A stretch of DNA of 64,000 nt from Thermoproteota archaeon. GTDB taxonomy: Archaea > Thermoproteota > Thermoprotei_A > Sulfolobales > Ignisphaeraceae. This document shows positions 19,869-58,657 of this stretch, in pieces. Both the position numbers and the translations under genes were made by a program. Each line of letters starts with the position of its first letter. The first letter of the stretch is position 1. Location: the NCBI GenBank assembly GCA_030550585.1, contig JAUQPB010000002.1, positions 20,001 to 84,000 on the forward strand. Direction: 5' to 3'. Below the pieces are notes generated by a model that searched no databases, was not told the DNA's origin, and worked only from the letters and a program-made list of their open reading frames with translations.

Positions 19869-19906
19869 AGCAAAGATGTAGCATGTTCAGCATTAAATTC
19901 CATACT

Positions 19907-36606: not shown

Positions 36607-36862
36607 TTACTCAATAAATATTGCACCAGATGATAGCGATATCTAAAGCATTTATGCTACACCTAACTCTAATCTAGCATAACGATATAGCTAAGCGTCT
36701 TTGGATAGAGATTGATGTACAGTATCCATGCTGTATAGAGTGTAATTGATTATCCAGAATCTCCTATCGAGATCCAGTAAACCAGGGTTCTAGAACTAAG
36801 TGTCTCAAGCTCTATTTGAAGTAGATCTATTGACTAGATACACCACCATCATTATCATAGGG

Positions 36863-36918
36863 ATAGAGATACACCATTGTATCTCTATAGCGATAGATTT
36901 TTTAGCCTAGATCTATCG
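36863..36918. repeat. Two adjacent perfect hairpins
   Basis: ATAGAGATACA-CCAT-TGTATCTCTAT followed by CGATAGAT-N12-ATCTATCG. Confidence 0.6.
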
Positions 36919-36985
36919 AGATAGACTTGGTGTAGAGTTTTGTCGAATTTTTGAGAAGCCTAAGCTCTATGTCTATGCACCACCT

Positions 36986-37795
36986 ATGATATCTCTCTTT
37001 TCAGCTATACTCTATGGTTTAGCTGCTCTTACCAACTATTTTACTGGTGAAGATCAGTACCTCTGGGAAAGTATCGTATATACGCTCTATTCTCTAGGTT
37101 TTCTAGGACTCTATGTGCTACTCTCAATTATTGCTGCATTAGAGCCTCGTCTAGAGGTCTACATGGTTGGTTTAGGTCTTGTAGCATCTATCTATGCTAT
37201 CTATCCAGCAATTGTCTTAATGGTTTTTGGCGGTATCGTGATATATGCTATAATGTTTTTCTATCTAATGGTATCTGTCACATATCACCCAAAGGTCTAT
37301 GGATACAGTAGGTTCTGGGGTATACCGAAGATTCTTCCAATCATAGTTGGTGCTCCAGTAGCTACTCGTGAGCTAGCTACAATAGTTTGGGAGATATATA
37401 ATCTACATAAGGTTCCTAACATGGAGCCACTAACAACACTAACTCTAGCGATATTGGTTCCAGTACTAATCATGTGTCTAGGAGATATACCTCCCTATAG
37501 AAGGATGGTGAAAATTCTACAGCTACTCGCTATAGCTATAGCAACTATAGCTTACCTATGGCTACTTCGCATAGAGATAGCAGGGTTCCGGATACCCCAT
37601 ATAGTGCTTCAGAAACTAGAAGAATACAGAGCTATAGATATGTTTGAGAAAGGGTTTAGAGCTATAGGGATGCTAGGTCTTTTAGCTTCAGTAGCAACAT
37701 TTGTAGAAGTATTGAAGCATAGCGCAGATGTAAAGAGCTATAAAAAGAAGAGACAAAGAGCTATAGAATCGGTAGAAGAAGTAGAGCTGGTGTAG
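36986..37795 (+). CDS. Multi-TM membrane protein
   Basis: 269-aa ORF with several hydrophobic segments. Confidence 0.55.
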   Translation: MISLFSAILYGLAALTNYFTGEDQYLWESIVYTLYSLGFLGLYVLLSIIAALEPRLEVYMVGLGLVASIYAIYPAIVLMVFGGIVIYAIMFFYLMVSVTYHPKVYGYSRFWGIPKILPIIVGAPVATRELATIVWEIYNLHKVPNMEPLTTLTLAILVPVLIMCLGDIPPYRRMVKILQLLAIAIATIAYLWLLRIEIAGFRIPHIVLQKLEEYRAIDMFEKGFRAIGMLGLLASVATFVEVLKHSADVKSYKKKRQRAIESVEEVELV

Positions 37796-37814
37796 CAAGA
37801 TAGAGCCACTAGAG

Positions 37815-40800
37815 CTTTCTACTCCCTTTCGGGAGTTTCTAGGTCTGTACCTAGCGCTCGGTCTCGCGTTTGGAGCATTCGACTTTCTACTCCCTTTTGG
37901 GAGTTTCTGTAAGTTCGAAATGTTTCCAGCATCAGACAAAGTGACTGTGACTTTCTACTCCCTTTTGGGAGTTTCATACTTGCTGTAGCTAAGTGCGTAG
38001 ATGTAGACAAGCTCATGACAACTTTCTACTCCCTTTTGGGAGTTTCTAGTTTACGCGTACTTAGATGCACCTGTGCAAATAAAAATCGAGACCTTTCTAC
38101 TCCCTTTTGGGAGTTTCATCTATTAAAAAACTAAAAGAGAGAATCAGACAAGAACATACCTTTCTACTCCCTTTTGGGAGTTTCCTAGCGTTAGGGTAGT
38201 CAAGGTGGTGGTGCCTCAAGTTGTTAAGCCCACTTTCTACTCCCTTTTGGGAGTTTCGCCAACGAGTTGCCAGAGGTAATCGAAGATATTTACGCCTACT
38301 GGAGGCTTTCTACTCCCTTTTGGGAGTTTCATGCATCTAATGCTGAACTCAATAGAAATAGTGCAAGAGATTTAACTATACTTTCTACTCCCTTTTGGGA
38401 GTTTCTCTGATATATGACACTCTAAGTGCAATAATTCAAGCATTTATACGCCTTTCTACTCCCTTTTGGGAGTTTCTGATGATATTGCTGTTGTTCTTGG
38501 TACATCGCTACTTGGATTGAAGCTTTCTACTCCCTTTTGGGAGTTTCCCGGACGGGGGCCCATGGCGAAGATATATATGTTTTGACCGAATCAGCATATC
38601 TATTCTTTCTACTCCCTTTTGGGAGTTTCACAATTAACAATCCCGATTTTAGTGTCTATATGCTTAGAAACAAAAACTTTCTACTCCCTTTTGGGAGTTT
38701 CATAGAGCTCTACATTGCTTCTCAATATCAGCAGAGTACTCTGTCCTTTCTACTCCCTTTTGGGAGTTTCCCAGACAAATATCATGTTATACTACGAGAT
38801 GTTGTTAATAAATTAACTTTCTACTCCCTTTTGGGAGTTTCGCTGAAATTGTGCATCCATTAGATACAGTTGAAACATTATTAACCTTTCTACTCCCTTT
38901 TGGGAGTTTCATTCAGTACAGAGGGTGGGGAGAAGGATGGAGTTGCGTGAATTCACTTTCTACTCCCTTTTGGGAGTTTCATTGTTCATACACCTCCCCC
39001 CACCCATAAACATCACCACACTATACTCCTTTCTACTCCCTTTTGGGAGTTTCCGAGTATCTTCTTGAATATGCTCAACAAGAAATCGAACGGTTCTTTC
39101 TACTCCCTTTTGGGAGTTTCCAATCCTTCACGAGCGTTCTTCAGTATATCCGTCTTTAATTCCCACTTTCTACTCCCTTTTGGGAGTTTCAAAACGGTAT
39201 GTTGTAGTACATAGCAACATCACCTACCACCCTATTCTTTCTACTCCCTTTTGGGAGTTTCGCTATTACATGCACATATACATCACAGACAATATCAGGT
39301 TATTCAGCTTTCTACTCCCTTTTGGGAGTTTCCAATAGAAAACTATTGATGATTGAATTATATTGCAGAGATACTGGTCTTTCTACTCCCTTTTGGGAGT
39401 TTCGCAGAGCGGGGTTTTTATATGTTTTTTGAATTGAATGTATATACACTTTCTACTCCCTTTTGGGAGTTTCAGTGCTGACTTTATAGCGATAACAAAA
39501 GACACTATATATGTGCAGCTTTCTACTCCCTTTTGGGAGTTTCTTATATGTAGAGACAGTATCGTTGCAGTCAATTCAGATTCAGTCTTTCTACTCCCTT
39601 TTGGGAGTTTCGAAGCCAAAGAAAACATAGAGGAAAACATACTGGTTATGAAGATAACTTTCTACTCCCTTTTGGGAGTTTCCCATCAATTGATGAATGG
39701 TATGAGTGGATGGTTGATGTATTATCAGCTTTCTACTCCCTTTTGGGAGTTTCAGCTCAACCCTATTGATGTTGAGAAATTCCTCTCTAGACTTAGACTT
39801 TCTACTCCCTTTTGGGAGTTTCGAGACATATCTAAAGCTGAAGAAAATATACATTGATCCGCCAAAGAACCTTTCTACTCCCTTTTGGGAGTTTCGAGTT
39901 TCAGAAATCGAAAGAGATCAATGTTGGTCGACCATCAAGTCCATTCGTCTTTCTACTCCCTTTTGGGAGTTTCAAAAGAACGTTGATAAAATCGATTTTT
40001 TGAGGGATTATCTCAAACATCTTTCTACTCCCTTTTGGGAGTTTCGTAACACAGACCATAAAGTCGAGACATCTAATCACCACTCTAACGGATATCTTTC
40101 TACTCCCTTTTGGGAGTTTCTATCTGTGGATGTGCTAAAGATCTACGGTGAGCTTGGTAGATACTCTTTCTACTCCCTTTTGGGAGTTTCAGATAGAATA
40201 GACTATATAACATTCTTATTAGCAGAGAAGATACAGAATCTCTTTCTACTCCCTTTTGGGAGTTTCCTAATGCTTTCTTTACCTCAACAAGAACCTCGAG
40301 TATGATATCTTTCTACTCCCTTTTGGGAGTTTCTTGATCCACCGGTCTATGTGTTGAGATACGAAAGATCCTGCTCCTTTCTACTCCCTTTTGGGAGTTT
40401 CTGTGTATTATGTTCATTATGATAGTAAGAGCGGTAAGTTGCTTTCTACTCCCTTTTGGGAGTTTCGTTGTATATGAGTTGTTCATAGTATATCCTTTTT
40501 CTGCATAGATCGCTTTCTACTCCCTTTTGGGAGTTTCTTATACAGATCCACTAGATTGATTTCTTTTGCTTTCTTTTCTCTCTTTCTACTCCCTTTTGGG
40601 AGTTTCCTATGTGTTTCAGAATCTTCTGATGCATAGAAATATAAATAGTACTCCTTTCTACTCCCTTTTGGGAGTTTCTTTGCTAGCTCTTATTCAACGA
40701 TAGAGAGATTAGCTAAGGATATAGTCTTTCTACTCCCTTTTGGGAGTTTCATCTGAAACTGAATTTGTAAATGTTGTTGAAAAATTAAAAAACGAAATCT

Positions 40801-41036
40801 TTCTACTCCCTTTTGGGAGTTTCGGAGAATAGTCCTCAAGCTTTGGGGTCTTGATAGTAAGCACGAGAAAACCTTTCTACTCCCTTTTGGGAGTTTCTAG
40901 AGAATGGAAGCTTGTTGCACTTAAAAATGAAAATGAGTTCGTTGACTTTCTACTCCCTTTTGGGAGTTTCATAGAGGGGAGAGGCTGGAGCCGGCAAGAA
41001 GAGTCAGGAGTCTTTCTACTCCCTTTTGGGAGTTTC
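37815..41036 (-). CRISPR. CRISPR array: 46 repeats of 25 bp, 45 spacers (about 40-57 bp); predicted transcription on minus strand
   Basis: Repeat (+) CTTTCTACTCCCTTTTGGGAGTTTC; crRNA-sense GAAACTCCCAAAAGGGAGTAGAAAG ends in GAAAG; leftmost repeat (37815) has a T-to-C change, as expected at a leader-distal end. Confidence 0.97.
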
Positions 41037-41445
41037 TGGTATAGCTACCTCAGGTCTAGTGTTAGCGTCATTCATAGCATGTAGGCTTAAGAAACCTCTA
41101 TCTTATGTTAGGATAGACAGAAAGATCCACGGTACACAGTCTATTGTTGAAGGTGTTGTAGAATCAAAAAACTGTTTAATAGTAGATGATGTAGCAACTA
41201 CTGGAGGATCTATAGAACATGCATATAACGCCATAAAGGAGGTTAGGGGTATGCCAACAGCAGCATTAGTGGTTGTAGATAGAGAACAAGGAGCAAGAAA
41301 GAAGATAGAGTCACTCGGTATGAAATTCTATAGCTATATTAATGTATCAAACATCTTCAAGTATCTTTATGAAAAAGGATTAATCGATACAAGAACCTAT
41401 GACGAAGTTATTAACTATATTAAGCGTTTTAGTCAAGATCTATAG
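41037..41445 (+). pseudogene. pyrE: Orotate phosphoribosyltransferase copy 2, N-terminally truncated at the CRISPR repeat edge
   Basis: [26 protein letters not shown]...[17 protein letters not shown] aligns to internal part of copy 1; roughly 70 N-terminal residues missing. Confidence 0.9.
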
Positions 41446-41524
41446 ACAGTGCCCAAAGAGTTCATCATTGTAGACAGAAATGTTTTATAGTTTACAGATA
41501 GTAGCATTAGATTTGGGCATAAAG

Positions 41525-42454
41525 ATGATCACATCATTTAAAAATAGAGATGTGGTATCAATACTGGACTTCACTAGGGAAGAACTCGAGACATTGTTTG
41601 AGTATGCAGATAAATTCCGCAAAGTTGAGGGAAAACTGAATCTACTAAACGGAAAGGTGGTTTCTCTCGCTTTTTTTGAACCATCTACTCGTACAAGGCT
41701 CAGTTTTGAAGTAGCAGCAAAACGTCTAGGTGCAGATGTTGTATCAATCATAGGTGAGGAAGCCTCCAGTATAGCTAAAGGCGAAAACTTGGCAGACACA
41801 ATACGTATGCTTGATGCATATTCCAATATTATAATTCTAAGACATAGATATGAAGGAGCAGCAAAATATGCTGCAGAAATAGCCGAAAACCCTGTTATCA
41901 ATGCTGGCGATGGTATTCAACATCATCCAACACAAGCTATGATCGATCTATATACAGTAAAGACACTCTTCGGATCAATCGATGGATTAGTGTATGTTGT
42001 TTTAGGGGATCTTAGATATGGAAGAGCAGCAATGTCATTCATATATGGTCTTTCTCTATATAAGCCCAAGAAGTTGTATGTAGTTGCTCCTCAACTATTA
42101 CGTATACGTAACGAAGTTCTACAAATACTGAAAGAAAGAGGTCTACCTATCGAAGAGAAAAATGATGTGAGAGAAATAATCAGTGAAGCAGATGTTCTAT
42201 ATGTTACACGTATCCAGAGAGAAAGGTTTCCAGATCCTATGGAGTACGAAAAAGTTAGAGGTTCGTATATTGTTACACTAGATCTTCTAGAGAAAGGTAA
42301 GTCTACATTAAAAGTTCTACACCCTCTACCAAAAGTAGATGAAATAGACCATAAAGTTGATACATCAAGATATGCAGCCTACTATCTTCAAGCTAGATTA
42401 GGTGTACCAGTAAGAATGTCTTTATTATCCCTAGTTTCTGGTGTAGAGATATGA
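41525..42454 (+). CDS. pyrB: Aspartate carbamoyltransferase catalytic chain, copy 2
   Basis: [33 protein letters not shown]; clear homolog of 22525-23457. Confidence 0.95.
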
Positions 42455-42933
42455 GTTCAGAAAACATACACACGTTGGTGGTTCCAAAAATACTGAATGG
42501 AACTGTCATCGATCATATACCAGCAGGTAGAGCTCTAGACATACTAAAGGTATTGAATATAACTGGAGGAGAAGGCTGGAGAATAGCGGTACTATTGAAT
42601 GTTGAGAGCAAGAAGTTAGGTAGAAAAGATATAATAAAAATAGAGCGTAGAAAATTAACTTCAGCAGAAGTAAACGTCATAGCACTCATAGCTCCTACAG
42701 CAACTATAAACATTATCGAAAATTTTGTTGTAGTCGAGAAGTTTAAGGTAAATGTGCCAGAGGTTATAGAGGGTGTAATTAGATGTCCGAATCCTACATG
42801 TATATCGAATAAAGAACGAGAACCAGTAAAGTCTAGGTTTAGAACATTATCAAAGGATCAGCTTATATTTCGTTGCGAATATTGTTCAACCATTGTAACT
42901 AGAGATGATATACTAAAGCTTATCATAAGATGA
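42451..42933 (+). CDS. pyrI: Aspartate carbamoyltransferase regulatory chain, copy 2
   Basis: [24 protein letters not shown]...CEYCST. Confidence 0.95.
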
Positions 42934-43716
42934 ATGTTATGTCTATTAAACCTGCCAAAATATTAAGAATAGATAGAATAGCTGAAAATACGTATCTCTT
43001 AGCTGTAGAATTATTTACGCATATGGACAATATTTCTCCGTTCAATTTTTATGGTTTGGGTACCTCGCGTAGATGAAATACCCTTAAGTATAGCATTTTT
43101 GGATAACAACATTATATATTTTCTATTCAAAGTTAAAGGTCTAGGTACAGAAACACTCTCTAAAATGTGTAAAGGTGAGATAGTAGGTTTAAAGGGGCCT
43201 CTAGGTAGAGGTTTTATCGTTGAAGACTATACGAAAAGTGTACTAGTGATAGCTGGAGGTATAGGTATAGCTCCCATCCCTTTCTTCATATATAGGTCAA
43301 AATACAAGAAGCTCGATGTTGTATGGGGAGTTAAACGAAGAGAAGAACTTTTTGATTTAAATATATTTAATCAAGATATTGGAGATAGGTATAGATTATT
43401 TATGGCAACAGAAGACTGTAGCTATGGTTTTTGTGGAACAGCTTTAGAGAGGCTAAAGAATATTCCACTAGAAGATTATGACATCATATTAGCAGTAGGA
43501 CCACAACCTATGTTGAAAGGTGTATGCGAATACATAAGAAACACTAACCTAGAAGCATATGTAGCTCTTGAAACAATGGTTAAATGCGGTATAGGTCTAT
43601 GTGGTAGTTGCTTCATTAGATCATCAAACAAGCTTCTCTGTATAGATGGACCAGTATTTAGATGTGATGAGGTGATACAGCATCTTGGAAAGACTAATAA
43701 TAGCAAAAACATATGA
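42930..43716 (+). pseudogene. pyrK: Dihydroorotate dehydrogenase electron transfer subunit copy 2, frameshifted near 43045-43050
   Basis: N-terminus [40 protein letters not shown] in one frame, remainder [15 protein letters not shown]... in another; [2Fe-2S] CGIGLCGSCF retained. Confidence 0.8.
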
Positions 43717-44956
43717 AGATGGTTATTTGAAAGAGATAATGGTGTTAGTTAATAAAGGTATTGTTGAAAGAAGATTTAACTATATCGACAAGAATCTATG
43801 TAGAGATTATGAATGTATAGATCTTCGTGCTAAAGGCATACTTCTCCCAGGGTTCATAGATATCCACGTACATTTACGTGGACTTAAACTTAGTTATAAA
43901 GAAGATGAAGAAAGCGGTACGAAGGCTGCTTCTAGAGGTGGTTTTACAGCTGTTGTAGATATGCCTAACACTTTACCACGAATAGATAACAAACAAGCTC
44001 TTCAAGAAAAAATAGAAGCACTTAAGCTAAAGAGTAGAGTTGATTTTGGAATCTATGTATCTCCAGCAAAAGACTATAGGGAAATGTATGACATGTTGTA
44101 TGAAGAAGGTGTTGTAGGTGTAAAATTCTTTCCTCAAGATCTTCACCTATTCCCCAAGATCCTCAATATTACTAGTTCCAGAGATCTAAATAGAATAGTG
44201 ATTGTTCATGCAGAACATCCATATATGGTGAATGATTGTGAAGCTGGTTCTAGATGGATGTGTAGACCTATTGAAAGCGAGCTTTCAGCTCTAGATATTG
44301 TTCACATGCATGTTAAAGAAAATATGAAGATCCATATCACACATATAACAAATGTTCTAACACTATCTTTAGCAAAAAGATATAAATTCACTACAGATAC
44401 TTGTCCACACTATCTCTACTTAGATTCTTCTCACGAGAAGGAAATGGGCTGTATAGCTAAAGTAAATCCTCCTCTTAGAACTCCTTCAACAAGATACTCA
44501 TTATTGAAACTACTGAAAGCATTTGATGCAGTTTCCTCTGATCATGCGCCTCACAGTTTCGATGAAAAACTTCTTGATTTCTCGATGTGTCCATCAGGTA
44601 TAGCTTCTCTAGAATTGACTGCTTCCTTAATCCTAAACTTAGTAAATTTAGGTGCTATAGATCTAGATGACGCTGTAAAGCTCTTATCTCGAGGTCCCTC
44701 CAAAATACTTGGACTCAAGAGATGGGGATGTACGTATATTGGTTGTATAGCTAGTTATACTGTAGTGGATATGAATAAAGAATTTCGTGTTGATCCTGAA
44801 ACATTTTATTCGAAATCTAGATTTTCGCCCTACAAAAAGAATGTATTAAAGGGTGTAGCTACAGCAACTATAGTCAGAGGCGGTATTGTTTATATCGATG
44901 AAGGATATGAAGAGAAAATCGAACCTGAACCTTTAACAAAGTTTATGGTGAATTAA
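43685..44956 (+). CDS. pyrC: Dihydroorotase, copy 2
   Basis: GFIDIHVHLRGL, GVKFFPQDL, VHAEHP, SSDHAPHS. Confidence 0.93.
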   Translation: MERLIIAKTYEDGYLKEIMVLVNKGIVERRFNYIDKNLCRDYECIDLRAKGILLPGFIDIHVHLRGLKLSYKEDEESGTKAASRGGFTAVVDMPNTLPRIDNKQALQEKIEALKLKSRVDFGIYVSPAKDYREMYDMLYEEGVVGVKFFPQDLHLFPKILNITSSRDLNRIVIVHAEHPYMVNDCEAGSRWMCRPIESELSALDIVHMHVKENMKIHITHITNVLTLSLAKRYKFTTDTCPHYLYLDSSHEKEMGCIAKVNPPLRTPSTRYSLLKLLKAFDAVSSDHAPHSFDEKLLDFSMCPSGIASLELTASLILNLVNLGAIDLDDAVKLLSRGPSKILGLKRWGCTYIGCIASYTVVDMNKEFRVDPETFYSKSRFSPYKKNVLKGVATATIVRGGIVYIDEGYEEKIEPEPLTKFMVN

Positions 44957-44958
44957 TT

Positions 44959-45864
44959 GTGCTGGAAACAGTTGTAGCCACAATAAGTCTTAGACATCCT
45001 GTAATGAATGCTAGTGGTATACTTGGAACACATAGAGAACATATATCAAGACTTGTAAGTTATGGATTAGCTGCTGTAGTTACAAAGACCATAACCCCAG
45101 AACCTAGGGAAGGTTATAATCCACCAATAATAGTTGAGCTACCTACAGGTGGATTAATTAATGCTGTAGGTCTAGAGAATCCTGGCAAAAATGTTATTAA
45201 AGAGCTTGTAGAGGAAGCTAAAAAATATAGCATACCTATTATAGTTAGTATTGGCGGTAGAAATGAAGATGAATTCATTGAGGTTGCTGTAGAAGCAGAT
45301 ATGAATAAAGCTGATGCTGTAGAGCTTAACTTAAGTTGTCCTCATACCAAAGGATATGGTGTCGAGATAGGGGTAGATCCTAAAAATGTGTACTCAGTAG
45401 TTAAAGCAGTTGTTTCAACAATAAAGATACCTGTTGTAGCTAAACTAGGGTTAAGCGATAGAGTAGTTGAATCAGCAGAAAAAGCATTAGAGGCAGGAGC
45501 CAAAGGTTTAACGCTCATAAACACAATAAAGGCTATATATATAGATGTATATTCTTTAAAGCCTGTATTAACGAATATCTATGGAGGTCTTTCTGGTACC
45601 CCAATACATCCTATAGCTGTCAGAATTGTCTATGATGTGTATAAAGAAACTAAAGCCGATATAATAGGATGTGGAGGGGTAGTAAACTGGCAAACAGCAG
45701 CAGAAATGATTCTAGCTGGAGCAAAAGCTATTCAAGTAGGAACAGCATTAATGCGTGATCCAAAGAGAATTGTAGAAGATATAGTTAAAGGATTGAGTGA
45801 ATGGCTAGAAACAATAGGAATAAAAGAAATTTCACAAGCAGTTGGTCTCGCTCATAAGGTGTAA
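44959..45864 (+). CDS. pyrD: Dihydroorotate dehydrogenase, copy 2
   Basis: HPVMNASGILGTH, NLSCPHTKGYGVEIG, IIGCGGVVNW. Confidence 0.93.
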   Translation: MLETVVATISLRHPVMNASGILGTHREHISRLVSYGLAAVVTKTITPEPREGYNPPIIVELPTGGLINAVGLENPGKNVIKELVEEAKKYSIPIIVSIGGRNEDEFIEVAVEADMNKADAVELNLSCPHTKGYGVEIGVDPKNVYSVVKAVVSTIKIPVVAKLGLSDRVVESAEKALEAGAKGLTLINTIKAIYIDVYSLKPVLTNIYGGLSGTPIHPIAVRIVYDVYKETKADIIGCGGVVNWQTAAEMILAGAKAIQVGTALMRDPKRIVEDIVKGLSEWLETIGIKEISQAVGLAHKV

Positions 45865-46702
45865 AGATGTGTCTATACTCGTTATATCAACATTAAACAC
45901 GAATTTAGCGATGGAGATAAATCGATACATTAAAGAGTTGAGTAATAAATATTCATATATAGTGACATATGTATGGGAATACTTGCCTCAACACTCTCTA
46001 GAGATACAATATTTCCATAAACCATTGGCTAAACTCGAGAAAGACTTTGAACAAATAGTAAAACTAAAGGAATTGATAGTATTTGTGAACACTATTTGCA
46101 TAGATTCTGTAAGACAACAATTAATGAATTACATAGACAGTAAAGTGGATAACGTTGTACTAATTGATTATTGTCTCAATCATGTTTCTTGTTATAAGAA
46201 TCTACTATCGCTACCTCCGTATATTACTATCGTAAAAACATTCATAGACCGTATAACCACAATTTTTTCAAATATCGACGAAATATTGATACGTATAAAG
46301 ATATGCAGAGAATGCTTGAAGACTCTTTCTATTCTACATAATATCGATACTATCAAGACTATAGATCTGTTCCAAGAACTAATAAGACAAGTTATTAAAA
46401 ATCATTACAGAATAGAAATTTCAATTAATACGATTACAGAATTTCTTTTAACTGCAAGAGGGATAGTGAAGGGGTACAGAGAAGAGAGAGCATATATGTA
46501 TAGAGTTGAGATATCTGAAGAACATACGAATAAAAGCTACATGCTACAACTTTTAGCAATCCTATTGTTAATAACCGATGGATATAATAAAGCTATGAGA
46601 AACATCTGCATCTCAGACATTGGTCTAGATGAAGGACTTTACTCAATCTTCTTTGCATATCTTGTTAAACATGGTGCAAACATCTCTGTGAATATACTCT
46701 AG
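45842..46702 (+). CDS. Uncharacterised protein at the end of pyr operon 2
   Basis: 286-aa ORF overlapping pyrD2 stop; same position as 26894-27577. Confidence 0.55.
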   Translation: MVSLIRCKDVSILVISTLNTNLAMEINRYIKELSNKYSYIVTYVWEYLPQHSLEIQYFHKPLAKLEKDFEQIVKLKELIVFVNTICIDSVRQQLMNYIDSKVDNVVLIDYCLNHVSCYKNLLSLPPYITIVKTFIDRITTIFSNIDEILIRIKICRECLKTLSILHNIDTIKTIDLFQELIRQVIKNHYRIEISINTITEFLLTARGIVKGYREERAYMYRVEISEEHTNKSYMLQLLAILLLITDGYNKAMRNICISDIGLDEGLYSIFFAYLVKHGANISVNIL

Positions 46703-46887
46703 ATAACGTTATATTAATGATGTAGCGACACAATACTTTTAATTGCTAAATACTAGCTAAAGATGTTTCACAATATATAGTGTTGTTTCAAAATCCTATA
46801 GAATTACTTCTATTGAGGCAATTTTAATTTATTTACCAGCTATAGACATATTTACCGATACAAGGATAAATAGTTTGGGATAACGAT

Positions 46888-49392
46888 ATGGAGTCTAAAA
46901 AACGTATAGCCATATATGTGGTAGTGATAATTGTTTTGGCTAGCATTACTATATATAGCTATTATTATCTAGTGAGAGAAAAAGATAAAGAGATAACTCC
47001 AAAGACATTACCAACAGAATCCATATCTCTAGTCACAGAAACAATACTTGTGGAGATTTCAACACCTACAACGAATACCATCAAAGAAGAGGAAGATATC
47101 ACAAAAACTACATTAACTACACCTACAACTTTTCCACAAGAAACGATAACCACAGTTATTAACCATACTACTAGTCAACCACCTTTATATCACCTATCGA
47201 CAGAAACCTTTCCACAGGAAAAGGGTTTAGCTATGAATATAATCTATTATCCCAAAACAGTTATTTCGTGTTACGAGAAAATCGAAGTAATGTTCAATAT
47301 ATCGAACCTAATGTACAGAAATCCATACAACTCAAGCGACATAGATGTTGTAGGATACATCTATACACCAAATAACGAGGTTATCAAAATTCCAGCGTTC
47401 TACACAAGGAACTACACGATTCAAAGTATGGGATCGAGGGAACATATAGTTTTATTCAATACGCCACCTCTCTGGGCATTACGTTTTACACCAAAAGTCT
47501 CTGGAGAATATAGGGTAGTTATAGAGGCTAGAAACAGTAGTGGGGTAAAAATTTCGAGTGAAGAGCTGAAGATACAGGTTTCTGAATGTAGAAACAAAAG
47601 AGGATTCATATCAATTGATGAATCAAAGAAATTCTTGGTGTTTGAAGACGGATCTTCAGAAATAATGCTAGGCATAAACTTAGCTTGGCCTCCAAACAAA
47701 CTTGAGGCTATATCCTTCTATAGCTCATGGTTCAAAAGACTTAAAGAACTAGGTGTTAAGGTTGTACGCATAGGTCTTGTTCCATGGTCTCTAAATCTAG
47801 AATGGAGTAATTTGAATCGCTATAGTTTAGCAGATGCAGCAAGAATAGATGAAATCATCAGATTGGCAGAAGAACATGATATCTACATAATATTTGTGTT
47901 TATGTGGCATAACGAACTTGCAGATGATTGGGGAAACAATCCATATAATGCTTTAAGAGGAGGGCCTATAAAGAATCCTGAAGAATTTTGGAGTAATCCC
48001 ATAGCCATAGATATATTCAAGAATAAGGTGAGGTACATAATCGCTAGATGGGGTTATTCGCCACATATACTTGCATGGGAATTAGTCAATGAAGCTGATC
48101 TAACATCAAACTTCTTTAGCATTAGAGATGCTTTTGTTAATTGGGTTAAAGAGATAAGTAGTTATGTAAAGTTACTTGATCCCTATAAACGACCTGTAAC
48201 TGTAAATCTTGCAGACTATAACTCAGAACCAAGAGTATGGAACATAGAGAGTATAGATTTGATAACAGTCCATAGATATGGACCCACAGGGTTTAAGGAT
48301 ATAGGATCCTCAATACCAAGTATAATAGATTCTCTATGGAATACCTATAGAAAGCCTGTAGTGATAACAGAGTTTGGTGTAGATTATAGATGGATAGGGA
48401 TGCAGGGATTTACCGGAATTCCGTATTGGGCTATAGATAGAGAAGGTATAGGTCTTCATGAAGGATTATGGAGTTCCACTTTATCAGGATCTCCTATATC
48501 GGCCATGAGCTGGTGGTGGGATACACAAATAGAGAGATACAACCTGTTCTATCACTTTAAAGCTTTATCTGAATTCCTAAAAGGTGTTGACCCAGTAAAA
48601 GGAAGACTAAGTAGATTAAATGTATATGTAGAATCAGCTTCAACTATCGAAGGCAATACAACTTCCTTAATACTTTATCCAAGTGCTGGATGGATCTGGG
48701 TTTCACCAGTAAAACAGAACATCTACACTATACACCCTAACGGAAAGATAGAGGGTGATACATCGCTACTTAGTGGCTTTGTGTACGGTAAAGGACATAA
48801 CCAGCGGACTCTGAATCCCATATTCATAGTTACGTTTCTCGATAGAGGTAGAATGATCTTGAATGTAAATTCTGTAGGAAGAGGATCAGCAGTAGTATCG
48901 ATATATGTCAATAACACAAAGATAGAGGAGAAAGTGTTACCCGATATAGATGGTAAAAGTGATGAAGATGCTAATGAGTATAATATCGACATTACAATAG
49001 ATTTTGAACCTGGCACATATGAGATTAGAATAGATAATGAAGGTACAGATTGGTATACATGGAACTACATAGTATTCGAAAACACTATATACGCTTCAGC
49101 AAAGGTGCAGGCAATAGGTTTAGGTAATAAGAGTTTTGCAATAATGTGGATAAGGAATACAGACTTTAACTGGTGGAATTATGCAGTATTAAACAAATCA
49201 CCTATACCTCTAAAGAATGTAGTGATTTCAGTAGAAGGTTTAGAAGATGGTATGTATGTAGTTGAGTTTTGGGATACATTTAGAGGAGAAGTAGTAGAAA
49301 GTAAAGAGGTAATGGTTACTCAAGGAAAAGCACGCATATCAATAGATAGTTTAGAGAAGGATCTAGCTTTAAAGATGTATAAAACAGAGTAA
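46888..49392 (+). CDS. Secreted/membrane-anchored GH5-like glycoside hydrolase, multidomain
   Basis: N-terminal TM, Thr-rich linker, TIM-barrel signatures AWELVNEAD and VVITEFGVDYRW, C-terminal accessory domains. Confidence 0.8.
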   Translation: MESKKRIAIYVVVIIVLASITIYSYYYLVREKDKEITPKTLPTESISLVTETILVEISTPTTNTIKEEEDITKTTLTTPTTFPQETITTVINHTTSQPPLYHLSTETFPQEKGLAMNIIYYPKTVISCYEKIEVMFNISNLMYRNPYNSSDIDVVGYIYTPNNEVIKIPAFYTRNYTIQSMGSREHIVLFNTPPLWALRFTPKVSGEYRVVIEARNSSGVKISSEELKIQVSECRNKRGFISIDESKKFLVFEDGSSEIMLGINLAWPPNKLEAISFYSSWFKRLKELGVKVVRIGLVPWSLNLEWSNLNRYSLADAARIDEIIRLAEEHDIYIIFVFMWHNELADDWGNNPYNALRGGPIKNPEEFWSNPIAIDIFKNKVRYIIARWGYSPHILAWELVNEADLTSNFFSIRDAFVNWVKEISSYVKLLDPYKRPVTVNLADYNSEPRVWNIESIDLITVHRYGPTGFKDIGSSIPSIIDSLWNTYRKPVVITEFGVDYRWIGMQGFTGIPYWAIDREGIGLHEGLWSSTLSGSPISAMSWWWDTQIERYNLFYHFKALSEFLKGVDPVKGRLSRLNVYVESASTIEGNTTSLILYPSAGWIWVSPVKQNIYTIHPNGKIEGDTSLLSGFVYGKGHNQRTLNPIFIVTFLDRGRMILNVNSVGRGSAVVSIYVNNTKIEEKVLPDIDGKSDEDANEYNIDITIDFEPGTYEIRIDNEGTDWYTWNYIVFENTIYASAKVQAIGLGNKSFAIMWIRNTDFNWWNYAVLNKSPIPLKNVVISVEGLEDGMYVVEFWDTFRGEVVESKEVMVTQGKARISIDSLEKDLALKMYKTE

Positions 49393-49674
49393 ATATAGAA
49401 TACAAAGCAGATACCAATGTTTCAACACTTTTATTATCTATTTTGTTTGTATTCACAATATCTCTACATAATATTACAATATTGAACTCTATAGATGGTC
49501 GGATACCAATAGATATATTTAATAAGGCTCTCTACATGTATAGTTTATGTTACATTTATCAAAATCATTAATTAGGTGATTTATAGAATATGAATAGGGT
49601 GTATCTATTTCCTAACTTCTGTGAAGAACAATCATAACCTCGGAGAACCCGAGATTGTTGAAAAACGCTGAGAG

Positions 49675-50322
49675 TTAAGCAGAGCGTTTCTTGTACATGT
49701 AGGAGTAGTTTGTTAAGTCTATAACCTTAGATGTATCCGTTTTGTATCGGTGTTCTTGTCTTAATGTTATAATTACATGTAAACCCATCTTGCTTAAATT
49801 CTCGAGAATTTCAGGGAATATGTATTCTGATGCATATTCGTCAAGATAGTTAAGAGGATCATCTATTATGGTTATAGGGGCTTTTACTAGTAAAGTGGTA
49901 ACCAACATTACTCTTCTCCTTTGCCCCATTGAGAGTTCTCTTAATCTAGCTTTTTGAGCATGGGTAAGACTGACTATCTCCAGCGCTTTTTCAGCCTCGC
50001 TTCTTTCCACGGGTTTCATGTACATGTATGGAACCAGCCTTAAGTAGTCAATAACCCTCAACTCTAGGGGCAAATCCACGTCCTCGGGAACGTAGTATAT
50101 GTCTTTCCTATGTTTTGTTATGTCAACTCCGTTAAAGGTGATCTTACCTCGTAAAGGAGGTAGAAGAGTTGCAAGCGTTCTTGCAAGTGTGGTTTTACCA
50201 ACACCGTTGGGACCAACAAAGATCAGAATATCATTCGCGTTAACGCTAAAGTTTAATACCCCAATAACCGGAATCTTACCATATCCGCATACTAGATCAG
50301 TTGCTTGTAACATGTTCATCAC
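49675..50322 (-). CDS. ABC transporter ATP-binding protein
   Basis: GPNGVGKTTLARTLATLLPP Walker A, LSMGQRRRVMLVTTLLVKAPITIIDDP. Confidence 0.9.
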   Translation of the reverse strand: MMNMLQATDLVCGYGKIPVIGVLNFSVNANDILIFVGPNGVGKTTLARTLATLLPPLRGKITFNGVDITKHRKDIYYVPEDVDLPLELRVIDYLRLVPYMYMKPVERSEAEKALEIVSLTHAQKARLRELSMGQRRRVMLVTTLLVKAPITIIDDPLNYLDEYASEYIFPEILENLSKMGLHVIITLRQEHRYKTDTSKVIDLTNYSYMYKKRSA

Positions 50323-50788
50323 CCATCAATCCCAATATACCACTTAAATCGAATACAATGTTGATTGACTGAAGTAGAAGAGGTATAAGAGCAAGGAAGT
50401 ATTCTGGATAGTACTTCAACACTATTAACCCAATCATGGACGGAACTAGAGGCCCTGAAACTGTTGCTAAATACAATCTCTCCAGGGGTACATAATCTAG
50501 GGGCTCTAATCGTATCATATGGTTGCTGAGCATAACAGATACATCGATGTCTAGTATCGCGAAATGAACAAGCTCGTGTAGGAGCGTTCCTGCAATAAAC
50601 AATGCTATTATGGCAATTGACGATAATATAAAGCTTAACCCTAAGTCAAGTGATGCCCATGTCATCATAATAGAGCCTATTGTGCAAGTCAATGCAAGGA
50701 GAATAGTTGGCTTACTTACGAGTAGGTGTTTTAGAATTAAGCTTACAAATAGACTGTATTTTCTTTTCTTTACAACTGCTTTAGCCAT
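50297..50788 (-). CDS. Integral membrane putative zincin-like protein (HELVH)
   Basis: AGTLLHELVHFAILDIDV inside a multi-TM protein (DUF3267/M50-like). Confidence 0.65.
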   Translation of the reverse strand: MAKAVVKKRKYSLFVSLILKHLLVSKPTILLALTCTIGSIMMTWASLDLGLSFILSSIAIIALFIAGTLLHELVHFAILDIDVSVMLSNHMIRLEPLDYVPLERLYLATVSGPLVPSMIGLIVLKYYPEYFLALIPLLLQSINIVFDLSGILGLMGDEHVTSN

Positions 50789-52167
50789 GGAATCACCTTG
50801 TATCTTATAAAATATCCAACCTTAACAGGCAAATCGTAAAATAAAATAGAGATGATGAACACCGATATGGTGTATGCAACAGCCATCGTGGTAAGATAAT
50901 TTTGTACTATTTTTTGTACTATTATCCGCCCCATGAGCGTGCCCACGATAAGGTAAAACATAAAACACTTAATAATCTCAAAGTCTTTTTCAACTCTATT
51001 AAGCGTGAACATTCCTGCTAGCAATCCTGTAGTTAAAATGAGTATGGGAACACCTTCTAGCTCGATTAAGCCAAAAACGTGGAGAACGCTGTATATGACT
51101 AATGCATATAACCAACCAAATGAGAAAACAGAAATAACGTTCAATACCCTTGTAGAAAACCTTGTATTCGTAAGGAATTTAACGTAATGCATGTATGAAT
51201 CAATGTACCTATCCACGACATTTAACAATGGAGGAACTACGAACATAGCTAGACTCCCGAAAAGACTGCCGAGCATCAATGCAAGTAGTGTTTCCTCGTC
51301 AAAACCTAAATCACGAACATTGGTTGTTACACCTCCTACGCTTATAGATAGTATTACCTTCTCCCCAAGTGCGAGCTTCCCGAGAGCTATGAGTAGAAAT
51401 AGAAACGCAGTAGTTGCGAGTATGTATGGACTGAATGATGCGTATCCAAGGCTTCTTAACACTTCAACTTTTGGAATTTTACTCATGAAAAGGTCGGTTA
51501 GTATCTTAATCAGTACTGGTGAAATCGAGTAAGCGATCAACACCAAAAGTAAACTCAAAGGTATCGAGATTACCATGCTAATGCCCAGTATTATTATCGA
51601 TAATAGTGATGACACGGTTGCTGTAATCCTTATGTTATGCCAGGACGCTATCAAGAATCCAAGGAGAAGTATGTATGTTGTGAAGAATATGTACATATTC
51701 AATGGGAGCTTCAGAACATGGATGTTTAACACGAACAGAAGTGAAAGAGGAAGAATCAACAACATGTAGTTGAACACGGAAAATAGAAGACTAACATCTT
51801 GTACCTTAGCGATGGGGTGCTGGTACAACTTAAGCTTTTTAAAAGAATTAAACCTGTTGATATATAGAAATCCTACTAACAGGAAGAGGAATATGCTGAA
51901 CGTGATGTAACCACTAATTATTCTCAATCTATGGGTAATGTCTAATTCTGTCAGGATGTCTAAGTACTTAGTGAGCTCTTTTCGTATATATAGCTCGTTA
52001 GCAATGAAGGAAAATATGATACTTAGCGGAAATAAGTAATCTTGTATTACGAGTAAAAAGTAACATCTAAAAAGGAAAAATATTGGGAGAAAAATATAAA
52101 AAATCTTCTTACATTTATTCATATTCGACATTACCTGCACTTGCAATTTAGAGTAACGAAGAGCCAT
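50770..52167 (-). CDS. Large multi-TM membrane protein, putative permease of the adjacent ABC ATPase
   Basis: 465-aa hydrophobic ORF overlapping its neighbours on both sides. Confidence 0.65.
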   Translation of the reverse strand: MALRYSKLQVQVMSNMNKCKKIFYIFLPIFFLFRCYFLLVIQDYLFPLSIIFSFIANELYIRKELTKYLDILTELDITHRLRIISGYITFSIFLFLLVGFLYINRFNSFKKLKLYQHPIAKVQDVSLLFSVFNYMLLILPLSLLFVLNIHVLKLPLNMYIFFTTYILLLGFLIASWHNIRITATVSSLLSIIILGISMVISIPLSLLLVLIAYSISPVLIKILTDLFMSKIPKVEVLRSLGYASFSPYILATTAFLFLLIALGKLALGEKVILSISVGGVTTNVRDLGFDEETLLALMLGSLFGSLAMFVVPPLLNVVDRYIDSYMHYVKFLTNTRFSTRVLNVISVFSFGWLYALVIYSVLHVFGLIELEGVPILILTTGLLAGMFTLNRVEKDFEIIKCFMFYLIVGTLMGRIIVQKIVQNYLTTMAVAYTISVFIISILFYDLPVKVGYFIRYKVIPWLKQL

Positions 52168-52583
52168 GAAATAGAAACACTACACTCTTCGACGTCACCT
52201 TTGCATGTAAGTAAAGGACAGGCTAAACCACAAGTTGCTAGATACACAGCGATGAACACTGCAGCTAGTATCACAATGGTGATTAATACTCCGTAGAGAA
52301 ACAACCTAGTTTTATAGCTTTTACTCGATTGCTTCTTGTGTATTGAGTAAGTAGTTAGAAGCGCTGAAAGTGTGGATAGTGGTATTATAGTGTGGGGGTT
52401 TCCGTGGTAGGAAACAACACAACTGTTGTTCTCGCAATAACTCCCGCTTATATTTATCAGGGGGATTCCCAGCCCGATGATTGATAATAAGACTGACGCA
52501 AGGAAGACTACTTGAGCTATTAAAACTGTTAACATCAAAGTTGTTGCCACGTAATACAGTCCCAGTATTACATGCCTTTTCAT
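52131..52583 (-). CDS. Small membrane protein with Cys-rich C-terminus
   Basis: Two or three TM segments then CGLACPLLTCKGDVEECSVSISWLFVTLNCKCR*. Confidence 0.6.
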   Translation of the reverse strand: MKRHVILGLYYVATTLMLTVLIAQVVFLASVLLSIIGLGIPLINISGSYCENNSCVVSYHGNPHTIIPLSTLSALLTTYSIHKKQSSKSYKTRLFLYGVLITIVILAAVFIAVYLATCGLACPLLTCKGDVEECSVSISWLFVTLNCKCR

Positions 52584-52749
52584 AACCTGCTCTCACCTAC
52601 TGTTAAAATCTCATGTATGAAATAGTTAAAAAATCTTTATGAACGTAGAGTGATCATGAATGTGTATGTTCAACTACATATGCTTAAAATTCGTCTCTTT
52701 TCGCAACTTGTGGTCTACCATAAGGTTGTAGAACTTTCTCCGAAAGCCT

Positions 52750-52935
52750 TCAGGCTGTCTTTAGCGGTCTTGAGCTTCTCTCTGCTCGTTGATTTTGCTT
52801 TCTCCAGGGTACTGCTTGAGAACTCTGGCTAGGTGCTTGGGGACGCTCTTAGGATTTTTGCTGTTTTGCGGTAGGCTTTCTCCTGCTTCCTTAGCTTCAC
52901 AATGTATTTCTCCTTCTTTCTCAAGGAGTAGAATA
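52750..52935 (-). pseudogene. Decayed helix-turn-helix protein remnant
   Basis: Reverse strand reads VKLRKQEKAYRKTAKILRASPST in one frame and ARVLKQYPGESKINEQREAQDR in another. Confidence 0.4.
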
Positions 52936-53161
52936 ACGTTTTCGGACACTTTTACTATCTGATTACTGTCTTACTGTTACTTATCACGTTATTTTACTAT
53001 TTATTGCTATTGCTCCTGTTGATTTATCCATCCTCTGCAACTCTATTCTGCTACTCTGCGAACAGAAAAACCATCCATGTAAAACACTCTCCTCACATAA
53101 AACCCTGTATCCTGTGTTTTGCATGATTGGTAACATGTCTTCATCATGAATCAGCTAGTTT

Positions 53162-53749
53162 ATGTCTAGACGATTAATCCATGGAATCCTCGGTTTACCC
53201 AACTCGCCTAAGTTCCTTAAGCTGTATCAATTTCACTTTCAATTCTTTCCATTATATTCAACGAAAACAATATCAAATAAAGTTACTATATTACTAGCTA
53301 TATTTAAATTTAATGGGAAATGGTATGCAATTACATCAAGTTTTACAGCTGGAACCATACTATGGGAGATAGAGGATCCTACATCAACGGTTTTTACCTA
53401 TGTTAAAACAATATTCGAGAAAGGTCGTGAAAATCCCTGCATATATCCTGTTACTACATCTAATGGCGAAATAAGGTTCATGATGTCATTGGCCACAGAT
53501 ACAGAATTTGGTAGTCGTCATAAAATCTATGTATTTGACACACACTTCAACCTTTTGGAGGAATACGACATCATTACATATAGAGTTTAGTCAGCAGGAC
53601 AATCATTTTACCTAGATCCATGGTACATCTACATAAATCAAGATCAATCTCCCACAAGAACTTTTCAAAACTCAGGTATATGGCCTGGAGCATATATAGA
53701 GATATATAGACTTAAGACAAACTATAGATACTACATTGAGGAGAAATAG
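53162..53749 (+). pseudogene. Hypothetical protein interrupted by an in-frame TAG at 53588-53590
   Basis: ORF 53162-53590 continues in frame as SAGQSFYLDPWYIYINQDQSPTRTFQNSGIWPGAYIEIYRLKTNYRYYIEEK*. Confidence 0.45.
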
Positions 53750-53819
53750 AATCCTACAGATCAGTCTCAGCGATATAATTGATACTTTAGTAAAATATAG
53801 TTGAATGTAGTTCTATTGC

Positions 53820-53980
53820 TGGAGCCGCCGGCGGGATTTGAACCCGCGACCACCGGCTTACAAGGCTTGTTCATATATATGTTGATTTGCATGAGCGATA
53901 TTTGTTGCATGCAATATCTAGTTGCAGATGTATTTGTTTTATGTCAAAGATTCTCTGATAAGCTTTTCGATGTATCTGGG
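53820..53980 (-). repeat. 161-bp inverted copy of integrase 3' end plus tRNA-Thr 3' half
   Basis: Reverse complement matches 56292-56452 with one mismatch (53849 versus 56423). Confidence 0.92.
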
Positions 53981-54095
53981 CTGTTTTCTTCTTGATGTTT
54001 TTAGGAAATGTTTATAAGCGTTGTTTCTATTAATGTTTATTAAGGTAATTCATGTCTGAAAAGTTGCTGAGACCCTACTCGTTTCGGGTAGACCT

Positions 54096-54350
54096 TTGAA
54101 GAGCACTAGCTTCTACTGGAGGAAGAAGATAGCGGATTACCAGTCCACTTTGAACAAGTACGAGTTAAAGACCTCTAGGAGGCTTAGGAGAATGTACAAA
54201 AAATGGAGAAAACAGATCAGGAACTACGTAAACTGGGTTGTGAGGAGCGCTATGGAGTGGTTGTACTGGAGAAGAGTATCAAGAGTGGTAGTTGGCCATC
54301 CAAAGTACATAGCTCAAAACAGCAGTAAAAGCTCCAAGATCACCAGATGA
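54096..54350 (+). pseudogene. IS200/IS605-type TnpB (OrfB) fragment
   Basis: YQSTLNKYELKTSRRLRRMYKKWRKQIRNYVNWVVRSAMEWLYWRRVSRVVVGHPKYIAQN resembles the TnpB central region. Confidence 0.65.
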
Positions 54351-54402
54351 GAACCATAACACTTATTAACTCGCTAAGTATGTAGGATACCGAGGTGGGA
54401 AC

Positions 54403-54729
54403 ATGGAGGAGGTATCCAATAACTCATCAAATATTGATGAAGTCGAGGAGATTATTAGAGACGCTACTGGAGCATTCTATAGATTTTTGGACTATATCAT
54501 GAATCCTGAAAACTATTCTATAGATAGTATAGAGTACAAGTTTAGTGATGTAATCGAAAAGGCGAGAGCCGTTGCGAGTAAGTTAAGAAGTAGAGGCAGA
54601 GATGATGAAGCTTCTCGTATATCAGCAGTAATCGAAGCACTTAAATATCTACGCAGTATGGCTCGCTCAGTAGCTAGCAAACATCAAACTACTTATTCAG
54701 ATCGAGAGAGACAGAAAGTGTCTATATAA
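54403..54729 (+). CDS. Small acidic hypothetical protein
   Basis: 108-aa ORF within the island. Confidence 0.45.
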   Translation: MEEVSNNSSNIDEVEEIIRDATGAFYRFLDYIMNPENYSIDSIEYKFSDVIEKARAVASKLRSRGRDDEASRISAVIEALKYLRSMARSVASKHQTTYSDRERQKVSI

Positions 54730-54905
54730 TTTCTATTATAAATTTTTTTCAAGATACTGTGGTCGAGAACATCTGTAGCTCTTCCTCAGTTGGTAGCACA
54801 TGTAGTGTTAGCCTTTTCCTCCCCCGGTTTTCAATATGCCTGCCCCAGTAGGGGCGTTCACGAGGAAATCTGCTTCAGCACTCTATAGATCCTGGTAAAG
54901 AGACG

Positions 54906-55064
54906 TTGCCAAAGGTTCTCGCGAGGATCATTAAAGAAAGATACGGAAAAGATATCGATGAAGAAAAACTGGTAGAGATCTTAAGAGGACTCGAGCTAGC
55001 AAAGATCATATACATTGATAGAAGATACTATAAAGCTAGACTCGATAAATCGCTGATGACATGA
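54906..55064 (+). CDS. Small ORF abutting the integrase start (TTG start)
   Basis: Reads MPKVLARIIKERYGKDIDEEKLVEILRGLELAKIIYIDRRYYKARLDKSLMT*; adjacent to integrase. Confidence 0.4.
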   Translation: MPKVLARIIKERYGKDIDEEKLVEILRGLELAKIIYIDRRYYKARLDKSLMT

Positions 55065-56333
55065 GTGTGTGGTTTGTGGTTCAAGGATCTCGATCTATCT
55101 AAGATCTCTGATGATGCTCGCTACAAGTTGTTCGAATACATTGTGAACGTTAAGAAGCTCAAATCATCTGATCTCTCTATCTCGTATTCGACGTTTAGCA
55201 GGGTTAGGAATAGAAAGATACCTGTATCAGATTCACTACTCATAAAGATACTTCAGCACATAACACCCGAAGAATTTGCAAAGCTGGTGTCGGCTGGAGA
55301 GAGGCTTAGAGCTCTAGGTATAGTTAAAGAGGATGGATCTATAGACTACTCACTAGCGCTAGAATTTGTAAAGCTCATACTAAGAGACGAGTACCTGAAA
55401 AACCTAGTGCTGAGGTTCGTTGTCCAAGAGTTTAAAGAAGATATTAGGAAAATGCTTGGAGTGAGTTTCGCAGGCATAAAGCTTGAGTGGAGTGAAGACT
55501 TCGAGAACTTTCTATCAGAGAGAAAGAAGCGTAGAAAGGTAAGAGACCCAGAGACCATAAACTACTACAGAAACCTATTCAAGAAACACCTAGAGGGGAA
55601 AGAACTATCAGAAGAACTAGTAGAATACGTAGCTAACCACAGAAACGGGTGGCTTAGGAACGTATTCAGACACTATATACAGTACCTATACCACAGGAGA
55701 AGAATTCCCCCAGAAACATTTGGCTGGATAATGGAGGTAGTCCCCTCAAGAGGGTACAAACTAGATGTAAGACCCTACCAAATCTCCATAGAAGATGTTA
55801 GAAAGACCCTAGAGTTCTTGAAGGAGAACCACAAACTGTACTACACAGTATACAGAACAATGCTAGAATCAGGAGCAAGATTCGAACACATACTGGAGAT
55901 GATAAGGACATGGAACCCTAATGAAGTAGTGGTCATAGAGTCCATAGATCTGGAGACGGAGAGGTTAGTGTGCTTCGAGGATAGGGGGTTCTGCAGATAC
56001 TACCTAGGGCTGAGAGGTCACCAGAAACCGTGTGAATGGATATACATGTCTAGAGGTACTATAGAGCTCTTGAAAACACTAGCACCCAAAGATATTGATA
56101 GGAATAGTGTTAGAAGGTATGCCAAGAGGCATAACCTAACCCTACCGAAGATGTTTAGGAAAGTCTCATGGAGGATAATGGTTCAGACCATGCCTAAGGA
56201 GGTAGCGAGGTTTATCCAGAGCAGATTCGGAGAACTAAAGACAAGCGAAGCGAGGTACGAAGACCTACTAACAGAAGCAGACAAACACTACCCCAGATAC
56301 ATCGAAAAGCTTATCAGAGAATCTTTGACATAA
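55065..56333 (+). CDS. int: Archaeal tyrosine recombinase (integrase)
   Basis: 422 aa; location next to attR; C-terminal MLESGARFEHILEMI...WRIMVQTMPKEVARFIQSRFGELKTSEARYEDLL resembles archaeal phage-type integrases. Confidence 0.8.
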   Translation: MCGLWFKDLDLSKISDDARYKLFEYIVNVKKLKSSDLSISYSTFSRVRNRKIPVSDSLLIKILQHITPEEFAKLVSAGERLRALGIVKEDGSIDYSLALEFVKLILRDEYLKNLVLRFVVQEFKEDIRKMLGVSFAGIKLEWSEDFENFLSERKKRRKVRDPETINYYRNLFKKHLEGKELSEELVEYVANHRNGWLRNVFRHYIQYLYHRRRIPPETFGWIMEVVPSRGYKLDVRPYQISIEDVRKTLEFLKENHKLYYTVYRTMLESGARFEHILEMIRTWNPNEVVVIESIDLETERLVCFEDRGFCRYYLGLRGHQKPCEWIYMSRGTIELLKTLAPKDIDRNSVRRYAKRHNLTLPKMFRKVSWRIMVQTMPKEVARFIQSRFGELKTSEARYEDLLTEADKHYPRYIEKLIRESLT

Positions 56334-56452
56334 AACAAATACATCTGCAACTAGATATTGCATGCAACAAATATCGCTCATGCAAATCAACATATATATG
56401 AACAAGCCTTGTAAGCCGGTGGCCGCGGGTTCAAATCCCGCCGGCGGCTCCA
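56292..56452 (+). repeat. attR region: integrase 3' end plus tRNA-Thr 3' half (partner of inverted repeat 53820-53980)
   Basis: GCCTTGTAAGCCGGTGGCCGCGGGTTCAAATCCCGCCGGCGGCTCCA at 56406-56452. Confidence 0.9.
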
Positions 56453-58648: not shown

Positions 58649-58657
58649 AGTCTCACC

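What the first reader, a model, noticed from the sequence alone, without database searches (positions are those of the whole stretch)
53820..56452. Integrase flanked by 161-bp inverted repeats each carrying an att core
Seen: 53820-53980 is the reverse complement of 56292-56452 with one mismatch, including the last about 42 bp of int, the spacer and the tRNA 3' half. The inverted copy has the same variant base as attL (GGTCGCGGG) and continues CCAGCAAT like attL, so it looks like an attP-type site. Inversely oriented att sites around int could support invertase-like flipping of the integrase segment, or record a second element integrating nearby.
Basis: partly seen in the sequence, partly recalled or inferred. 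Interest (0 to 1): 0.7.

Follow-up and report, generated by a model that had tools for sequence, protein, structure and literature searches.

The report
Archaeal mobile element carrying captured chromosome
In a heat-loving archaeon (genus Ignisphaera), an integrated mobile element carries about 17 kb of DNA that is mostly another Ignisphaera species' chromosome, including a near-complete copy of its genes for making pyrimidines, and the odd inverted repeat around the integrase is best read as the scar that records where the element once sat in that other species.

Summary
The inverted repeat is real: 53820-53980 against 56292-56452, 160/161 bp, with one mismatch inside the tRNA core. The interpretation changes.

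The window holds a 20.3-kb element integrated in tRNA-Thr(TGT): attL core 36147-36193, attR core 56406-56452. Its tyrosine integrase belongs to a family whose attP sites carry a palindromic arm on each side of the core. The inverted copy has the P arm but no P' arm. Its outer side runs into the 3' flank of tRNA-Thr(CGT) of another Ignisphaera species, G003 (96% over 572 bp). It is therefore an attR-type junction, not an attP.

Behind it, 41038-49615 is 97.7% identical to the only pyrimidine operon of G003, and 36387-37811 is 98% identical to another G003 locus. Native DNA of the two species is only about 68% identical. The repeat is best read as the fossil right end of an earlier integration in a G003-like donor, carried along with captured donor chromosome (specialised-transduction-like).

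Flipping of the integrase segment is not supported: it would pair attR with attR. If inversion occurs at all, attL x the inverted site, flipping 17.6 kb of cargo, is likelier. No reads were available to test this. The exact recombination path remains inferred.

The parts
36117..36193 (+). tRNA-Thr(TGT), integration target; its 3' half 36147-36193 is the attL core (T variant)
   Evidence: ARAGORN; core identity and variant base; same tRNA and left flank in G004, G005, G006, G009
36194..36386 (+). Left end of the element with the P' arm palindrome TTGCATG-N14-CATGCAA at 36240-36267 (47 bp beyond the core)
   Evidence: Pattern found 3 times in window, 0 expected; only these three places in the whole genome; same position class in relatives
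36387..41037 (+). Captured segment 1: 3' fragment of a nitroreductase-like gene, 269-aa ORF (36986-37795), CRISPR array 37815-41036 with 46 repeats, ending against a truncated gene
   Evidence: 36387-37811 is 98% identical to G003:C2; repeats; junction. 'Nitroreductase' is read from the sequence, not tested against a family library
41038..49615 (+). Captured segment 2: pyrimidine operon (pyrB 41480, pyrI 42451, pyrK-like 43051, pyrC 43685, pyrD 44959, 286-aa ORF 45842) and an 834-aa ORF; the first gene is truncated at 41038
   Evidence: 97.7% identity over 8.6 kb to G003:C4; families; frames intact; only close pyrB in G003
49616..53294 (-). Segment absent from G003: ABC-transporter ATPase and three further ORFs
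   Evidence: No match in the genus; 464-aa protein 87% identical to one genome of another family; ATPase
53295..53819 (-). Captured 3' flank of the donor tRNA-Thr gene, fused to the inverted core
   Evidence: 95.6% over 572 bp (53295-53866) to the G003 tRNA-Thr(CGT) and its 3' flank
53820..53980 (-). Inverted att site: core 53820-53866, P arm palindrome 53887-53914, last 42 bp of int 53939-53980; attR-type (no P' arm)
   Evidence: 160/161 identical to 56292-56452; arms
53981..54350 (+). IS605-type OrfB remnant (54096-54350 plus upstream) abutting the inner end of the repeat
   Evidence: Pfam OrfB_IS605 7.8e-11; homologues in four genomes
54403..54729 (+). 108-aa ORF, no clear family
54870..55064 (+). 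Truncated gene directly upstream of int, relic of the element backbone
   Evidence: 39% identical to sequence upstream of int in L050
55065..56333 (+). Tyrosine integrase, 422 aa, intact
   Evidence: Phage_integr_3 3.4e-24; phrog integrase; SSV1 integrase structures 3vcf, 4dks, 3uxu
56358..56385 (+). P arm palindrome TTGCATG-N14-CATGCAA
   Evidence: 67 bp before the last 28 nt of the core as in relatives
56406..56452 (+). attR core (C variant, derived from the recipient's own tRNA-Thr)
   Evidence: C variant also in the G005 tRNA-Thr genes and in the G000 tRNA-Thr(CGT)

Best explanation
The inverted site at 53820-53980 is a fossil attR. An element with this integrase was once integrated in a tRNA-Thr gene of a G003-like Ignisphaera, giving the junction int - P arm - core - donor tRNA flank - donor pyrimidine operon. 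An aberrant event, such as excision or replication running past the right end with illegitimate joining, put that junction and about 12.8 kb of adjoining DNA, inverted, into a form of the element that kept a complete attP and an intact int. A further donor segment (nitroreductase-like fragment and CRISPR locus) was joined on. The hybrid moved into the window's species and integrated normally by attP x attB at tRNA-Thr(TGT). An IS605-type remnant now abuts the inner edge of the second int copy, leaving 42 bp of it. Shown: the inverted repeat, the arm-core anatomy, identity and direction of the donor DNA, the integration site. Inferred: order of events, vehicle of transfer, recombination path, and that the inverted junction formed in the donor.
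For: Repeat and variant base. Outer side of the inverted core is collinear with the G003 tRNA-Thr(CGT) flank (95.6%, 572 bp) and the pyr region behind it is 97.7% identical over 8.6 kb, while alignable native DNA of G000 and G003 is 67-68% identical. G003 has no other close pyrB and its operon lies beside homologues of G000's native pyr neighbours, so G003 has the inherited copy. Arm palindromes on both sides of the core are a family trait; the inverted site has only the P arm. Both flanks of the insertion are contiguous in G006 apart from the insert. Core T in attL against C in attR fits attP with T and attB with C.
Against: A single aberrant excision does not give the inverted order; at least four junctions without evident homology are needed (36387, 41038, 49616/53295, 53981). 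The inverted core is TGT-type, whereas the matching flank in G003 follows tRNA-Thr(CGT), whose core differs at several bases; the donor strain must differ there or have rearranged flanks, as G005 has. The donor with the integrated element is not in the collection.
Confidence: 0.75

Rival explanations
1. Active switch: the integrase recombines the inverted sites. Either the 2.6-kb int segment flips (inverted site x attR, the first reader's idea) or the 17.6-kb cargo flips (attL x inverted site), competing with excision (attL x attR).
For: Intact integrase; 47-bp cores, two of them identical; IntpTN3 inverts DNA between inverted tRNA sites in vitro and recombines identical stretches as short as 104 bp (PMC5495485, PMC8371274); the repeat has 131 identical bp in a row.
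Against: Only one orientation in the assembly; no comparable repeat around int in relatives; inverted site x attR joins two sites that both lack the P' arm; the repeat is explained by captured DNA.
Confidence: 0.1
2. Assembly chimera or contamination: DNA of a G003-like organism from the same sample was joined to this contig.
For: 96-98% identity to another species and duplicated pyr genes would look like contamination; the genome is listed with 1.95% contamination; tRNA cores and CRISPR repeats are repeats that mislead assemblers.
Against: The junctions inspected (36387, 41038, 53981) show no long repeat shared by the joined loci. The P-core-donor junction itself needs an element integrated beside donor DNA. 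Only 7 contigs; both outer flanks match the host lineage.
Confidence: 0.1
3. The donor segment with its tRNA flank was already on the element, and a second copy of the element integrated into that captured tRNA fragment inside the element (self- or tandem integration), followed by deletion.
For: Gives the same hybrid site; tandem integrations occur in relatives (L056 has two distal cores with P arms).
Against: No tRNA-Thr 5' half is left anywhere inside the element, and the second integrase copy is reduced to 42 bp, so it needs additional deletions.
Confidence: 0.05

Closest known systems
Specialised transducing elements of temperate phages (lambda gal/bio type; textbook knowledge, not tested here)
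   Same: An integrated element leaves with chromosomal DNA that adjoined its att site and carries it to another cell, where the integrase inserts it.
   Different: Archaeal; the vehicle is unknown (no virion genes recognised in the ORFs searched); the captured att junction is inverted relative to the element's own; several captured segments.
SSV-type (PF16795) archaeal integrases: SSV1, pTN3, pT26-2
   Same: Same catalytic domain; tRNA 3' half as target (PMC8371274).
   Different: Those families carry att inside int and split the gene on integration; here att lies 72 bp outside and int stays intact. Paired palindromic arms around the core are not mentioned in the passages of the review searched.
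IntpTN3-driven chromosome flipping in Thermococcus
   Same: Tyrosine recombinase, tRNA sites in inverted orientation (PMC5495485).
   Different: No inversion is demonstrated here; the inverted site is explained by captured donor DNA.

Membership tests
Site-specific integrative element at a tRNA gene | Direct core repeats at both ends, one completing the tRNA | tested here: met
   36147-36193 and 56406-56452, 46/47 identical
Site-specific integrative element at a tRNA gene | Integrase gene inside, next to one end | tested here: met
   int 55065-56333, 72 bp from the attR core
Site-specific integrative element at a tRNA gene | Empty site in relatives | tested here: met
   G006 has left flank, tRNA-Thr(TGT) and the 521-aa ORF of the right flank together; a further 3.7 kb outside attR is also absent there
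SSV-type (suicidal) archaeal integrase | PF16795 catalytic domain | tested here: met
   E 3.4e-24
SSV-type (suicidal) archaeal integrase | att site inside int, gene split by integration | tested here: not met
   core is downstream of the stop codon and int is whole
Invertible (phase-variable) integrase segment | Both orientations observed | tested here: not met
   One orientation in the assembly; no reads available, so only weak evidence
Specialised-transduction-like capture | Chromosomal DNA of a donor adjoining the donor's att site, joined to an att junction | tested here: met
   Inverted core fused to the G003 tRNA-Thr flank and pyr operon
Specialised-transduction-like capture | Transfer by virus particles | not testable with these tools
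   No virion genes recognised among the cargo ORFs searched; no related integrase found in viral contigs

The most novel reading that the evidence does not exclude
A three-site integrase system in a hyperthermophilic archaeon that moves whole chromosomal operons between species by specialised-transduction-like capture and that, because it carries an inverted attR, can invert its 17.6-kb pyrimidine-operon cargo as an alternative to excision.
Probability: 0.1. Interest if true: 0.75.

Novelty: new variant of a known kind. Interest (0 to 1): 0.55.

Why it matters
It gives a concrete case of how most of a biosynthetic operon and a CRISPR array pass between species of hyperthermophilic archaea: donor locus, hybrid att junction and recipient site can all be pointed to. 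It also shows paired palindromic arms around the core in a family of archaeal integrases, a lambda-like layout that I did not find in the review of archaeal recombinases searched here, and makes integration, excision and inversion by this enzyme directly testable.

Tried and rejected
(a) 'Inverted copy = second attP of the element': rejected, since its outer arm is host tRNA flank and lacks the P' arm. (b) G003 and G004 first looked like the same element in two orientations, which would have been evidence for cargo flipping; rejected because each has a single close pyrB, so those are native operons that lie beside tRNA genes. (c) Search for inverted repeats around int in relatives: none comparable. 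(d) Viral contigs: no related integrase. (e) CRISPR spacers against fetched loci: only chance-length matches outside the array itself, none shared with the G003 array. (f) Papers on specialised transduction in archaea: nothing relevant among the listed hits of open-access text searches. (g) A 45-bp match of 53980-54024 in G008 as an insertion-sequence end: no OrfB frame follows it there, so left open.

Full report
Setting. The window lies in a 1.76-Mb, 7-contig genome (G000, contig C7). A same-genus genome, G009, is a single contig of 1,875,953 bp, the length published for Ignisphaera aggregans (PMC3035270), so the genus is taken to be Ignisphaera.

53820-53980 and 56292-56452 are inverted copies, 160/161 identical. 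They contain the last 42 bp of int, a 72-bp spacer and the 47-bp tRNA-Thr core. The single difference is the variant base: T in attL and in the inverted copy, C in attR.

The element. tRNA-Thr(TGT) 36117-36193 provides attL and 56406-56452 is attR; the direct core repeats enclose 20.3 kb. Int (55065-56333, 422 aa) has the Phage_integr_3 domain and matches SSV1-type integrase structures. Unlike SSV-type enzymes its att site is outside the gene. In G006 the left flank, tRNA-Thr(TGT) and the 521-aa ORF corresponding to window 60197 are together, so everything from 36194 to about 60117 is extra in G000; the last 3.7 kb of that lies outside the att sites.

att anatomy. Exact TTGCATG-N(8-20)-CATGCAA occurs three times in the 64-kb window with none expected: 36240 (right of attL), 53887 (inverted copy) and 56358 (left of attR). 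With spacing 12-16 the whole G000 genome has only these three places, and G004 has eight, several of them beside tRNA genes. In relatives of the integrase the stretch between tRNA and int carries a palindrome with other half-sites (ATGTTTCAG, GTTCCCG, AGTTCACG). Seven of 12 loci have one with arms of 7 bp or more and spacer 12-15, against 5% of control stretches; three more have one with spacer 17-18. Where a distal core is visible next to a palindrome (C4 paralog, L056 twice, L055) the same half-site recurs 65-68 bp before it, as in the window. attP in this family is therefore read as arm - core - arm. The inverted copy has the P arm at the correct distance and no palindrome of this kind on the P' side, so it is attR-type. 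That the palindromes bind the integrase is inference.

The int gene sits in different places in close relatives: most have tRNA - core - arm - int 5' end; the window, L050 and L052 have int 3' end - arm - core.

What lies behind the inverted core. Its outer side runs for 572 bp at 95.6% into the flank of G003 tRNA-Thr(CGT). 41038-49615 is 97.7% identical to the G003 pyr region, in the same order relative to that tRNA. G003 has no other close pyrB, and next to its pyr operon lie homologues of window 16393-22319, the neighbours of G000's own pyr operon. The G003 copy is therefore in its inherited position, and the direction of transfer is G003-like to G000. G000 keeps its own pyrB (71% identical). 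36387-37811 is 98% identical to another G003 contig and is followed by a 46-repeat CRISPR array that shares no spacer with the G003 array and ends directly against a truncated gene of the pyr segment. Native DNA of the two genomes is 67-68% identical where alignable. The cargo pyr reading frames are intact apart from the truncated first gene. 49616-53294 is absent from G003; its 464-aa protein has one relative, 87% identical, in another family of the order.

Little of the original element remains: 36194-36386, a truncated gene 54870-55064 related to sequence upstream of int in L050, int, and the P side. The inner end of the repeat (53980/53981) lies next to an IS605-type OrfB remnant.

Interpretation. 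The inverted site is read as the right-end junction of an integration in the donor, carried along with adjoining donor chromosome. That it is inverted relative to the element's own int-P-core, and that several junctions lack homology, means one simple aberrant excision does not suffice; the exact path is not known. The variant base is explained by attP with T (as in most of the genus) and attB with C (as in G005 and in G000's other tRNA-Thr). This places the crossover 5' of that base, on the anticodon side of the core; SSV1 integrase exchanges strands around the anticodon loop (PMC8371274).

Flipping. attL x inverted site is an attL x attR-type pair and would flip 17.6 kb. IntpTN3 inverts DNA between inverted tRNA sites in vitro (PMC5495485), so neither is excluded; there is no evidence for either.

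Limits. No reads; one genome per species; the donor strain itself is not held; a genome name is inferred only for G009. A chimera cannot be fully excluded, but the junctions inspected show no shared repeats.

Noticed in passing
G005:C3 and G005:C6 (L181, L086) against G006 and the window: Right flanks of tRNA-Thr(TGT) and tRNA-Thr(CGT) are exchanged in G005 relative to G006: a rearrangement with breakpoints at the two tRNA-Thr genes, like integrase-driven inversions in Thermococcus.
   Followed up: partly
G000:C3:227000-244000 (L048, L182): About 16 kb ending at tRNA-Thr(CGT) is inverted relative to G005 and G006.
   Followed up: no
37815-41036: CRISPR array of 46 repeats (CTTTCTACTCCCTTTTGGGAGTTTC) carried inside the mobile element, without cas genes noticed beside it; leader side 98% identical to G003, no shared spacers.
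   Followed up: partly
56453-60117: 3.7-kb module (519-aa kinase-like and 410-aa ORFs) between attR and the native right flank; homologues lie together in G009:C1:577787-580946.
   Followed up: no
L046/L047 (G000:C4:242797-259990): A second element of 17.1 kb in the same genome at tRNA-Arg(CCG) with a 76% identical integrase in the usual placement and its own arm palindromes.
   Followed up: partly
L056 (G040:C47): Two distal cores with P arms at 9.5 and 16.4 kb from one tRNA-Arg, suggesting tandem elements.
   Followed up: no
L059, L099 (G004): Decayed integrase 3' ends face the tRNA from its 3' side with an arm palindrome between, a third placement of int relative to att.
   Followed up: no
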